Of a DNA stretch of 64,000 nucleotides, positions 29,393 to 32,874 are shown piece after piece. The stretch is from the NCBI RefSeq assembly GCF_001308875.1, contig NZ_KQ465121.1, positions 1-64,000 on the forward strand, written 5' to 3'. This stretch comes from Lysinibacillus sp. ZYM-1. GTDB taxonomy: Bacteria; Bacillota; Bacilli; Bacillales_A; Planococcaceae. A program made the translations under genes and the position numbers. Positions within the stretch are counted from its first letter, which is position 1, and each line of letters starts with the position of its first letter. The notes under the pieces were generated by a model. That model was not told the origin of the DNA. It saw only the letters and a program-made list of their open reading frames with translations, and did not search any database.

Positions 29393-30448
29393 ATGAGTAA
29401 AACAATTTTAGAAGTAAAAGATTTAAAAATTAACTTTAAAACATATGCAGGGCTTGTCCATGCAGTTCGTGGTGTAAACTTCGATTTAAAAGAAGGTGAA
29501 ACACTAGCAATCGTGGGTGAATCTGGTTCTGGTAAGAGTGTTACGAGTAACGCCTTAATGAAATTAATTCCACAGCCACCTGGTATTTATGAGTCAGGAC
29601 AAATTTTATTTAACGGCCGTGATTTAATTCCACTAACTGATAAAGAAATGACAAAAGTACGCGGGAACGAAATCGCTATGATCTTCCAAGATCCGATGAC
29701 AAGTTTGAATCCAACGATGAAGGTCGGACGTCAAATAACCGAAGTAATTTTACAACATAAAAAAGTTTCAAAGGCTGATGCTAAAAAACGTGCAATTGAA
29801 CTTTTATCACAGGTAGGCATTCCCTTCCCAGAAAAACGTTATAAACAATATCCACATGAATTTTCAGGCGGGATGCGTCAACGCGTTGTTATCGCCATTG
29901 CACTTGCGGCTGATCCAAAGCTGCTTATTGCCGATGAGCCAACAACAGCATTGGACGTTACGATTCAAGCACAAATTTTAGAATTAATGAAAGAAATCCA
30001 AAAAAGTTCGAAAACATCTATCATCTTCATTACCCACGACTTAGGTGTTGTGGCTAACGTTGCTGACCGTGTAGCAGTTATGTATGCTGGTCAAATCGTT
30101 GAATATGGTACTGTCAATGATATTTTCTATAATCCAAAGCACCCATACACATGGGGTCTACTAGGTTCAATGCCTGATTTAGATAATGATACAGATGAGT
30201 TATTGCGCACGATTCCTGGTTCACCACCGGATCTTACAAACCCACCTAAAGGTGATGCATTTGCAGCACGTAACGAGTTCGCAATGGCTATTGATTATGA
30301 ACAAGAGCCACCGATGTTCCAAGTAAGCGACACTCATTTTGCAAAAACTTGGTTGTTACATCCTGACGCGCCAAAAATTCCACTTCCAGATGCGGTTGCT
30401 AAACGTATTGAGGGCTTTTTAGCGAAGGAGGCAGAATTCAATGACTAA
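29393..30448 (+). CDS. oppD: Oligopeptide ABC transporter ATPase OppD
   Basis: This ATPase of about 351 residues has Walker A GESGSGKSV, the signature FSGGMRQRV, Walker [13 protein letters not shown] and the switch His in FITHDLGV. The C-terminal oligopeptide extension lacks the four-cysteine pattern found in AppD and AppF: the matching stretch reads GDAFAARNEFAMAID. GTG 29384 is in frame, but AAGGAGG lies 8 bases before ATG 29393, which is preferred. It overlaps oppF by 8 bases. Confidence 0.94.
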   Translation: MSKTILEVKDLKINFKTYAGLVHAVRGVNFDLKEGETLAIVGESGSGKSVTSNALMKLIPQPPGIYESGQILFNGRDLIPLTDKEMTKVRGNEIAMIFQDPMTSLNPTMKVGRQITEVILQHKKVSKADAKKRAIELLSQVGIPFPEKRYKQYPHEFSGGMRQRVVIAIALAADPKLLIADEPTTALDVTIQAQILELMKEIQKSSKTSIIFITHDLGVVANVADRVAVMYAGQIVEYGTVNDIFYNPKHPYTWGLLGSMPDLDNDTDELLRTIPGSPPDLTNPPKGDAFAARNEFAMAIDYEQEPPMFQVSDTHFAKTWLLHPDAPKIPLPDAVAKRIEGFLAKEAEFND

Positions 30449-31367
30449 AACGGGTGCAAAAAAAATACTTGAAATTAAAAACGTAAAGCAATATTTCGGT
30501 TCACCAAGCAACCCTATTAAAGCTGTTGACGACATTAGCTTTGATGTCTATGAAGGTGAAACACTTGGCCTTGTTGGTGAATCAGGCTGTGGTAAATCGA
30601 CGACTGGTCGCTCGATCATTCGTCTTTATGATATTACAGGTGGCGAAATTATTTTCGACGGTGAAAATGTCCATGGTAAAAAATCAAAAAGCGATTTGAA
30701 GAAATTTAACCGCCAAATGCAAATGATTTTCCAAGACCCTTACGCTTCTTTAAACCCTCGTATGACAGCTGGTGAAATCATTGGTGAAGCCTTTGATATT
30801 CATGGCCTTTACAAGGATAAAAAGGAACGTCGTGAGAAAATTCAAGAGTTACTTGAAGCTGTTGGTTTAAACAAAGAGCACGCGAATCGTTACGCACACG
30901 AATTCTCTGGTGGTCAACGTCAACGTATTGGGATTGCCCGTGCACTAAGCTTAGATCCTAAGTTTATCATTGCCGATGAGCCAATTTCTGCGCTTGACGT
31001 ATCTATCCAAGCACAAGTTGTTAACTTACTAAAAGAATTACAAAAAGAGCGTGGCTTAACCTATCTTTTCATTGCCCATGACCTTTCTATGGTAAAATAC
31101 ATCAGTGATCGCATTGCTGTAATGTACCGTGGTAAAATCATGGAAATCGGTAAAGCAGATGATATTTACAATCACCCTGTTCATCCGTATACAAAATCTT
31201 TACTATCAGCTATCCCACTTCCTGATCCAATGTCAGAGAAACGCCGTCAACGTATTCAATACAAGCATACAGAAGTTGATGAAAGTGCTTCTTACCACGA
31301 AGTAGGCGATCAACACTATGTTTATGGTACTGCTGATTTAGTAAAAACTTGGGTTTCTAACCGATAA
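30441..31367 (+). CDS. oppF: Oligopeptide ABC transporter ATPase OppF
   Basis: This 308-residue partner ATPase has the same length as B. subtilis OppF. Walker A is GESGCGKST, the signature FSGGQRQRIGIARAL, Walker B FIIADEPISALD, and the switch His is in IAHDLSMV. It also lacks the C-terminal cysteine cluster motif. The start ATG 30441 has GAAGGAGG 10 bases upstream, inside the end of oppD. It is the last gene of the operon, followed by a strong terminator. Confidence 0.94.
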   Translation: MTKTGAKKILEIKNVKQYFGSPSNPIKAVDDISFDVYEGETLGLVGESGCGKSTTGRSIIRLYDITGGEIIFDGENVHGKKSKSDLKKFNRQMQMIFQDPYASLNPRMTAGEIIGEAFDIHGLYKDKKERREKIQELLEAVGLNKEHANRYAHEFSGGQRQRIGIARALSLDPKFIIADEPISALDVSIQAQVVNLLKELQKERGLTYLFIAHDLSMVKYISDRIAVMYRGKIMEIGKADDIYNHPVHPYTKSLLSAIPLPDPMSEKRRQRIQYKHTEVDESASYHEVGDQHYVYGTADLVKTWVSNR

Positions 31368-31374
31368 AAATTTT

Positions 31375-31416
31375 AACTCCTATCAACAGTATAATTACTG
31401 TGATGGGAGTTTTTTA
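31375..31416 (+). terminator. Terminator of the opp operon
   Basis: AACTCC plus TATCA (31375-31385) pairs with TGATG plus GGAGTT (31401-31411), followed by a T tract, 8 bases after the oppF stop. Confidence 0.8.
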
Positions 31417-31613
31417 ATTTAATTCTTTATTACCCATGTTCCTCAGTAATGTAAACCTAAATAAATTCATAACCTATCGGTACGTTGAATTCACCTCACT
31501 CCTTTATTCTATATGAAAAATATAGTAAATAAATACCATTTTTGTAAAATATATTTAAAAATATTAGAGAATATATTAAAATATAGTTAATACGAATAAA
31601 GGGGTGTATTCAA

Positions 31614-31745
31614 ATGAAAAAATATATGAAACTTATTCTTGCGACAGGTTGTTTAACAATATTTTTATTTAGCATCGGTTCAACAACTGCGTCCGCATAT
31701 CCAGGTCCATGTCATAGTCCAAAGCCTTGTGTGATTAGACCATAA
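31614..31745 (+). CDS. Putative secreted 43-residue cysteine/proline peptide
   Basis: I do not recognise a family. The frame encodes a short basic start (MKKYMK), a hydrophobic core of about 15 residues and a type I signal-peptidase site ending ASA. The predicted mature peptide is YPGPCHSPKPCVIRP: 15 residues with two cysteines six apart that could form a disulfide, and five prolines. AAAGGGG lies about 9 bases before the ATG. A possible weak promoter (TTTAAA, 17 bases, TAAAAT) lies about 35-60 bases upstream, and a terminator follows 8 bases after the stop. It is thus a complete unit between the ends of two peptide importers. It could be a signalling or Phr-like peptide, a small antimicrobial or a spurious frame. 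The first is inference from context. Confidence 0.6.
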   Translation: MKKYMKLILATGCLTIFLFSIGSTTASAYPGPCHSPKPCVIRP

Positions 31746-31753
31746 TGTTTGAT

Positions 31754-31785
31754 AAAAGGCAGCTGAATGCTGTCTTTTATTTTAT
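31754..31785 (+). terminator. Terminator after the small secreted peptide gene
   Basis: AAAAGGCAGC (31754-31763) pairs with GCTGTCTTTT (31769-31778) with one G-U pair, a 5-base loop and further T residues. Its presence supports real transcription of the peptide gene. Confidence 0.75.
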
Positions 31786-31885: not shown

Positions 31886-31925
31886 GGCACCTTTAAATGC
31901 AATTATTTTTACATTTAAAGGTGCC
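31886..31925 (-). terminator. Terminator of the app operon
   Basis: A perfect 14-bp stem, 31886-31899 with 31912-31925, lies 40 bases past the appC stop. On the minus strand it is followed by GAATTTTAT. It could also stop plus-strand transcripts. Confidence 0.75.
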
Positions 31926-31965
31926 CTATTTTCTTGTCTCTTCATTCAATTCATTTGATATTCAA

Positions 31966-32874
31966 TTACCTTCTTGATTTTGGATTTAATGCATCTTTTA
32001 AACCTTCACCGATAAAGTTTATCGACAAAATCACTAACGTAATAGCAGTGGCAGGCGGTACCCACATCCAAAGCTTATCCTTTAATACATCTGAGTTTCT
32101 AGCTTCGAACAGCATATTACCCCAACTTGGCGTATCTGCTGGTACACCAAATCCTAGGAAGCTTAAACCAGATTCAGCAACGATCGTTACTGCCATTATC
32201 AACGTTGCTTGTACAATAATCGTCGAAGCAACGTTCGGTAGTAAATGCTTAGTAATGACCTTGGAAGACTTACATCCAATTGATTGGGATGCTAAAATAT
32301 ATTCATTTTCCTTTTCAGCAAGTACCCTACTTCGTACAACCCTCGCAACACCACCCCACGCTAACAGCGAAATAACAATAATTAAAGTCCATAGGCCTGA
32401 TATTTTTCCAACCACAATCGAGTTTAATACAATTACAAATACCATAAATGGGAACATTAATACAAAGTCAGTAAATCTCATTAATATTTGGTCAATCTTT
32501 CCACCAAAGTACCCTGAAATGGCACCAACTGTTGTTCCAATTAAAACAATAAATAACATACAGCTTAATCCTACTGTTAATGATGATCTACCAGCATAGA
32601 GCATTCTTGTAAATACATCTCGTCCATTCGTATCTGTGCCCAACCAGTTTTCACTTGATGGCGGTTGACTTATTTTTGTAAAATCTACACGGACAATATC
32701 TTTCGTGGTGATGTATGGTGCAAGGAACGATAGAATGATTACAATTAATAAAAATAGAAGACTAATCATGGCTAATTTATTTTTAAAGAACTTCCTTCTT
32801 GCGATCACCCATGGTGAGGGGCTTTTTTTTGGCGATTTCGGCGTTAAAACTTCTTGATCTGTTACCAATGTCAT
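31966..32874 (-). CDS. appC: Peptide ABC transporter permease AppC
   Basis: This 302-residue OppC-type permease has a cytoplasmic N-terminus (about 1-30), a first helix, the LGTDTNGRDVFTRMLYAGR segment, and the EAA loop ASQSIGCKSSKVITKHLLPN. It is the last gene of a five-gene unit in the order appD-appF-appA-appB-appC, the same as in B. subtilis. GGAGGGGG precedes the ATG. It forms the channel with AppB. Confidence 0.92.
   Translation of the reverse strand: MTLVTDQEVLTPKSPKKSPSPWVIARRKFFKNKLAMISLLFLLIVIILSFLAPYITTKDIVRVDFTKISQPPSSENWLGTDTNGRDVFTRMLYAGRSSLTVGLSCMLFIVLIGTTVGAISGYFGGKIDQILMRFTDFVLMFPFMVFVIVLNSIVVGKISGLWTLIIVISLLAWGGVARVVRSRVLAEKENEYILASQSIGCKSSKVITKHLLPNVASTIIVQATLIMAVTIVAESGLSFLGFGVPADTPSWGNMLFEARNSDVLKDKLWMWVPPATAITLVILSINFIGEGLKDALNPKSRR

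What the first reader, a model, noticed from the sequence alone, without database searches (positions are those of the whole stretch)
31614..31785. Uncatalogued 43-residue secreted peptide gene lodged between two peptide importers
The frame has a ribosome-binding site, a textbook signal peptide ending ASA, a 15-residue mature peptide with two cysteines and five prolines, and its own terminator. It lies in the convergent gap between the opp and app operons. Exported peptides re-imported by Opp-type systems are known in Bacillus (Phr peptides). This one is cysteine-containing and unlike the linear Phr pentapeptides. Its role as a signal, bacteriocin-like peptide or wall peptide is open.
Basis: partly seen in the sequence, partly recalled or inferred. 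Interest (0 to 1): 0.72.

Follow-up and report, generated by a model that had tools for sequence, protein, structure and literature searches.

The report
Secreted two-cysteine loop peptide gene
This short gene is conserved in some related soil bacteria and encodes a peptide that is predicted to be exported and cut to 15 residues with a likely disulfide loop; several relatives in other genera carry a sequence matching the binding site of the sporulation switch Spo0A in front of the gene, so the peptide would probably be a signal that cells send out as they begin to sporulate.

Summary
A 43-codon frame at 31614-31745 has a ribosome-binding site, a signal peptide ending ASA, a two-cysteine tail (YPGPCHSPKPCVIRP) and a terminator. 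The frame is intact downstream of oppF in 8 of 32 Lysinibacillus-genus genomes and decayed in one; codon changes fit purifying selection.

It belongs to an unnamed family. Of 34 sequences tabulated, 33 have exactly two Cys in the mature part, mostly with a 3-6 residue loop and a 4-residue tail. The core PGPCxSPKPC recurs behind a different signal peptide.

An exact Spo0A box (TGTCGAA) precedes 9 of 21 genes first tested, 8 of the 9 at -95 to -98. None of the six genes of the window subgroup has it, nor do five more members read later, so Spo0A control of the window gene is not shown.

The Opp re-import idea is weakened: only one of 14 loci outside the genus abuts an Opp operon, and Rap and RNPP_C receptors are undetected in the window genome. 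I favour a sporulation-onset extracellular signal (0.37) over a Phr-like imported signal, a sibling toxin or a metal/wall peptide. Function is untested.

The parts
31598..31606 (+). Shine-Dalgarno AAAGGGGTG, 7 nt before the ATG
   Evidence: sequence
31577..31582 (+). candidate -10 (TAAAAT) at -37 from the ATG, the position where G014, G025, G003 and G007 have TATAAT; an equally good match, TATATT, lies at -42
   Evidence: weak, the promoter scan finds no excess over shuffles
31614..31697 (+). signal peptide, 28 residues ending ASA
   Evidence: cleavage inferred from the A-x-A rule, no predictor was run
31698..31742 (+). mature peptide YPGPCHSPKPCVIRP, two Cys around a 5-residue loop, 4-residue tail
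   Evidence: identical in G018 and G013
31743..31745 (+). stop codon TAA
31751..31781 (+). intrinsic terminator hairpin of the peptide gene
   Evidence: (-16.6 kcal/mol, z -4.27)
31375..31411 (+). hairpin plus T run after oppF, terminator-like, separating the peptide gene from the opp operon
   Evidence: read by eye; not listed by the scan
30441..31367 (+). oppF, upstream neighbour in all 8 carriers found in the genus
31966..32874 (-). appC (Opp4C), convergent neighbour
   Evidence: 423.6 bits, cut-off 350

Best explanation
It is a conserved single-gene peptide locus whose product is predicted to be exported by Sec, cut after ASA and likely closed by a disulfide into a small loop with a free four-residue tail, and it would probably act outside the cell as a signal made around the onset of sporulation. 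Shown: the gene, its conservation in some congeners, a codon pattern of purifying selection, the two-Cys architecture of the family, and an exact Spo0A box at a nearly fixed place in part of the family. Inferred: export, cleavage and disulfide. Untested: Spo0A control of any member, signalling, and the receptor. The window gene itself has lost or never had the box. The differing cores and tails (CVIRP, CHKPCLERT, CYDNN and others) would be the specificity code. With known intracellular receptors undetected in this genome, a surface sensor is more likely than an imported one.
For: Frame conserved and selected. 33 of 34 tabulated members have exactly two Cys in the mature part and 23 of those 33 have exactly four residues after the second. 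The core PGPC[HY]SPKPC occurs under two kinds of signal peptide (P0004, P0013). Exact TGTCGAA in 9 of 21 upstream regions against a shuffle mean of 0.11 (maximum 2 in 2000), 8 of 9 at -95 to -98; background 0.02 per 250 nt in 15 loci. The best -10 match follows 55-61 bp after the box in 7 of 10 genes with an exact box (G101b, found by the box itself, included). Several paralogues with different cores in one genome (G012, G101, G178). Mature parts are short, hydrophilic and on average near-neutral (mean net charge 0.21, GRAVY -0.63; window peptide +2 and -0.56). No maturation, exporter or receptor gene recurs among the 27 nearest flanking proteins of at least 110 residues at 14 loci outside the genus.
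Against: No Spo0A box in the window gene or its five closest homologues (0 of 6). Over the 19 gene copies read in other genera, only 9 have the box, two of which (G101b and its copy in G102) were found by it; five members of other sub-types (L210 second gene, G152b, G178b, G101c, G093b) have none. The box-plus-RBS pattern also occurs before unrelated genes and matches in 160 of 261 genomes. No receptor candidate. Presence in 8 of 32 with one decayed copy means it is dispensable. One member (G178) lacks Cys. In G025, G003 and G007 the mature part changes more than the signal peptide. No expression data.
Confidence: 0.37

Rival explanations
1. A Phr-like signal that is re-imported by the neighbouring Opp or App system and binds an intracellular receptor.
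For: Directly downstream of oppF in all 8 carriers found in the genus; a second, independent Opp-adjacent locus in G092/G093; size and signal peptide like Phr precursors; PF11131 PhrC_PhrF touches 2 of 21 members.
Against: RapH_N in 0 of 32 genomes while B. subtilis rings; RNPP_C absent from the window genome (no control genome passed that cut-off); 13 of 14 loci examined in other genera are not beside Opp genes; the PF11131 match of P0008 covers only the signal peptide and is under the cut-off (24.6 against 25 bits); a disulfide loop is unlike linear pentapeptides.
Confidence: 0.15
2. A sibling-killing or antimicrobial peptide made at sporulation onset, like the Bacillus subtilis cannibalism factors.
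For: Spo0A box in part of the family; two Cys; fast turnover of cores and tandem copies; immunity genes under 110 codons were not searched for at the loci of other genera.
Against: In the window gap the only other frames are of 31 codons or fewer; no maturation or exporter gene among the nearest flanking proteins elsewhere; mature parts are hydrophilic and on average near-neutral, not amphipathic and cationic.
Confidence: 0.18
3. A secreted metal-binding, redox or cell-wall/spore-surface peptide without a signalling role.
For: Two Cys in 33 of 34 members, His in the CHSPKPC and CHKPC cores.
Against: His and loop length are not conserved; cores diverge strongly between paralogues in one genome; no metal or redox gene recurs nearby, though a catalase, a periplasmic-binding (Peripla_BP_2) protein and a MerR gene each occur once.
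Confidence: 0.18
4. A chance frame or a decaying relic without function in this strain.
For: Absent from 23 of 32 genus genomes, decayed in G026; the window gene lacks the box found in part of the family.
Against: Mature part identical in three species while the signal peptide differs; pN/pS near 0.3; intact RBS and terminator.
Confidence: 0.05

Closest known systems
Phr peptides of Rap-Phr (PF11131 PhrC_PhrF)
   Same: about 40-residue precursor, Sec signal peptide, short C-terminal product, several paralogues per genome (features of Phr recalled)
   Different: two Cys and a likely loop, no linear pentapeptide, RapH_N undetected in the genus, Pfam match of relatives confined to the signal peptide and below cut-off, none for the window peptide
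RRNPP quorum-sensing systems as defined for RRNPP_detector (PMC10075063, passages seen)
   Same: secreted propeptide of 10-100 aa with a Sec signal
   Different: no adjacent TPR receptor recognised at the window or at 14 other loci examined
Spo0A-induced cannibalism factors Sdp and Skf (recalled)
   Same: under Spo0A (here only the box, in part of the family), secreted, disulfide-containing
   Different: no operon with processing genes seen; hydrophilic and shorter
Leaderless communication peptides with RopB-type receptors, reported also for L. sphaericus (PMC10518010, passages seen)
   Same: peptide signalling in the same genus
   Different: that class is leaderless and predicted to be highly hydrophobic; most are 8-10 residues, L. 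sphaericus being named as a length exception

Membership tests
Rap-Phr | Rap receptor (RapH_N, PF18801) encoded in the genome | tested here: not met
   0 of 32 genus genomes, B. subtilis control positive
Rap-Phr | PF11131 match over the curated cut-off | tested here: not met
   window 0; best member 24.6 bits against 25, signal peptide only
RRNPP system | adjacent TPR receptor gene | tested here: not met
   window: neighbours are oppF and appC. Other genera: none of the 27 nearest flanking proteins of at least 110 residues at 14 loci hits a TPR or receptor family at E 1e-5; 6 of the 27 hit no family
RRNPP system | RNPP_C receptor (PF18768) in the genome | tested here: not met
   none in G000; over cut-off in 5 of 32, of which one (G025) carries the peptide. 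No control genome passed the cut-off, so sensitivity is uncertain
RRNPP system | Sec-exported short propeptide | tested here: inconclusive
   A-x-A motif and hydrophobic core read from sequence (29 of 34 have A-x-A at the cut I chose); no signal-peptide predictor available
Spo0A regulon | 0A box TGTCGAA upstream of the window gene | tested here: not met
   best match near -96 has 3 mismatches. In the family: 9 of 21 exact
Spo0A regulon | Spo0A present | tested here: met
   256 of 261 family genomes including G000, so not discriminating
Bacteriocin or cannibalism operon | co-encoded immunity, processing or export genes | tested here: inconclusive
   none at the window; elsewhere only proteins of at least 110 residues were examined
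Opp-imported signal | loss of response without Opp | not testable with these tools
   needs mutants

The most novel reading that the evidence does not exclude
An undescribed class of peptide pheromones in Planococcaceae: Spo0A-driven, disulfide-looped, with a variable core and a four-residue tail as the recognition code, working without a Rap/RRNPP-type receptor, of which the window gene is a promoter-rewired member parked beside the peptide importers.
Probability: 0.3. Interest if true: 0.75.

Novelty: new variant of a known kind. Interest (0 to 1): 0.5.

Why it matters
The genus lacks detectable Rap phosphatases (RapH_N in 0 of 32 genomes), the devices that let Bacillus subtilis feed cell-cell signals into sporulation (recalled). 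A family of exported peptides, part of which has a Spo0A box at a nearly fixed place, would be a candidate for how these sporulating soil bacteria talk at that decision, and it gives a short, synthesisable molecule to test. It is also an example of a gene family that Pfam and NCBIfam leave nameless.

Tried and rejected
Opp linkage as proof of import: rejected, because the linkage does not hold at 13 of 14 loci examined in other genera. Phr membership by PF11131: rejected, the match is only the signal peptide. RNA element instead of protein: Rfam gives nothing over a gathering score and the codons show synonymous excess. Plasmid-borne spread: no plasmid match. G567 tandem peptides (L223): set aside as probably unrelated, beside phage- and transposase-like genes. 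Weak hits inside long frames were dropped as ordinary signal peptides of larger proteins; some weak hits in small frames (for example G177, G135, G078) were not opened. No structure was predicted.

Caveats on counts. The 34 sequences include one found by a scan that required two Cys (second gene of L210), one found by the box pattern (G101b), and one (G152) without a usable start codon, probably decayed; discount these three in strict counts. The 13 further proteins first listed (sequences) show two Cys each by eye, but some of them repeat or nearly repeat tabulated members (P0022, P0024, P0029) and the profile already contained the Cys columns. The 21 upstream regions are not independent (G092 and G093 are nearly identical, others are close relatives) and the G152 region there was cut at a wrong start. 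In one search the script took a wrong frame for oppF in G022, so that flank was scanned from slightly inside oppF.

On re-checking, 'most relatives' for the box was too strong and small immunity genes had not been looked for; I lowered the best explanation from 0.40 to 0.37, the interest from 0.52 to 0.50, and raised the toxin rival from 0.17 to 0.18.

Papers: searches listed no title that describes this peptide family. I saw search listings, the abstract and section list of PMC10569065, and passages of PMC10518010, PMC3485338 and PMC10075063; no paper was read whole.

Full report
Observation. The frame at 31614-31745 is as described: ribosome-binding site, 28-residue signal peptide ending ASA, a 15-residue tail YPGPCHSPKPCVIRP and a terminator. 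It sits in the gap between the oppF end (31367) and the convergent appC end (31966); the flanking genes match oligopeptide ABC importer families. No Pfam or NCBIfam family matches the peptide at E 0.001 and Rfam reports nothing over a gathering score.

Conservation in the genus. Among the 32 genus genomes held, the oppF 3' flank was scanned in all (33 oppF copies). The peptide gene is present in 8 (G000, G018, G013, G025, G003, G007, G014, G012), each time directly downstream of oppF. G012 has two tandem genes with different cores, and G026 has a decayed copy without a start and with a broken frame. Named matches are L. boronitolerans, L. xylanilyticus and Lysinibacillus sp. FJAT-14745. An oppD-oppF tree scatters the carriers among non-carriers, so repeated loss, or transfer, is likely. 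G000, G018 and G013 have an identical mature part while the signal peptide differs (pN 0.11-0.14 between G000 and the two); in the G025/G003/G007 group the reverse holds. Over the six genomes compared, summed pN/pS is 0.34 (signal) and 0.29 (mature), consistent with a translated, selected product.

Linkage to importers. In G000, G018, G013, G014 and G012 the convergent neighbour is app; in G025, G003 and G007 it is another solute-binding-protein operon, read by eye as Opp-type. Of the 24 genomes without an intact gene, 20 show one of these same two kinds of convergent neighbour and 4 (G008, G030, G029, G015) show something else (my reading), so the site usually lies between two importers whether or not the peptide is there. 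Outside the genus I examined 14 loci: one (G092, also in sister G093 with a transposase-like ORF in between) faces an Opp-type operon end; the others adjoin catalase, clpP, squalene-hopene cyclase, a germination gene, DUF3231, MerR, a subtilase and other genes. Distant ABC ATPase matches 2-3 kb away in L216 and L218 (27-36% identity) were not counted. Lysinibacillus was the discovery locus, so one of 14 is only suggestive.

The family. Iterated profile searches of 261 family genomes (asked for the order, searched the same number), a class sample of 398 and the protein database reveal an unnamed family with named members in Lysinibacillus, Solibacillus, Metasolibacillus, Sporosarcina, Paenisporosarcina, 'Bacillus ndiopicus' and Lederbergia. 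Of 34 tabulated sequences, 33 have exactly two Cys in the mature part, the loop is 3-6 residues in 30 of those 33, and 23 of 33 have exactly four residues after the second Cys. Cores fall into recurrent types: PGPCHSPKPC, GPCKPGEKFCHI, GPWPGCxxNKPCYDN, CHKPCLERT, PKPICTNNGHCYYP. P0004 and P0013 carry PGPC[HY]SPKPC behind a signal peptide like that of Solibacillus-named P0012 and P0014; their own sources are unnamed, so that this core reaches beyond the genus is likely but not proven. Three of the 34 should be discounted in strict counts (see tried and rejected).

Promoter. TGTCGAA, the core of the Spo0A box (PMC3485338, passages seen), occurs exactly in 9 of 21 upstream regions (shuffles: mean 0.11, maximum 2 of 2000), 8 of the 9 at -95 to -98 from the ATG and one at -103. 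G014 has TGTCAAA at -95. Background in 15 loci is 0.02 per 250 nt. In G012 a second box-like heptamer TGTAGAA follows 10 bp downstream. In 7 of 10 genes with an exact box the best -10 match lies 55-61 bp after it (this set includes G101b, which was found by the box). Against this: the window gene and its five nearest homologues lack the box (0 of 6), as do G098, G152, G094, G092 and G093 and five further members of other sub-types, and the pattern used as bait also precedes unrelated genes. Spo0A itself is nearly universal (256 of 261), so its presence discriminates nothing.

Mechanism. I commit to an exported loop peptide acting as an extracellular signal around sporulation onset. Export, cleavage and the disulfide are inferred from sequence; Spo0A control is inferred for part of the family and not supported for the window gene; receptor and effect are unknown. 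Receptors of the Rap type are undetected in the genus and RNPP_C is absent from the window genome, which argues against the import route but does not exclude a divergent receptor. Hydrophilic mature parts of near-neutral mean charge (the window peptide is +2) and the absence of visible processing genes argue against a membrane-active toxin; small immunity genes were not sought at the other loci.

Limits. Statistics on homologous promoters are not independent. The interest score reflects a real and unnamed family with a strong regulatory signature in part of its members, but with an unproven function and with the window copy lacking the signature.

Noticed in passing
L134 6132-6524 (L. xylanilyticus, G003): Downstream of the peptide gene lies a decayed duplicate of the oppF 3' end followed by a frame resembling a second, broken peptide gene; G007 has a shorter oppF remnant.
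   Followed up: partly
L223 8062-8370 and 11088-11340 (G567, another family of the class): Two tandem pairs of MKKF... secreted peptides, three of the four with two Cys, near phage-terminase-like and transposase-like genes; probably a separate family.
   Followed up: partly
L215 9107-13351 (G101): A large subtilase gene is the next gene, about 1 kb from a two-Cys peptide gene; a possible processing protease, one instance only.
   Followed up: no
G000:C2:68741-68841 (L170): An exact Spo0A box at -95 before a lipoprotein gene that reads like a solute-binding protein, with nearly the same upstream sequence in G013, G027, G026, G011, G031, G018 and G002.
   Followed up: partly
L260 (G025), L261 (G016), L262 (G020), L263 (G029), L264 (G023): RNPP_C receptor candidates over the cut-off occur in five genus genomes and could be paired with peptides of their own.
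   Followed up: no
window 31934-32599: A 221-codon frame on + lies antisense to appC; likely spurious.
   Followed up: no
window 31886-31925: A 17-pair hairpin oriented as the terminator of the app operon.
   Followed up: no
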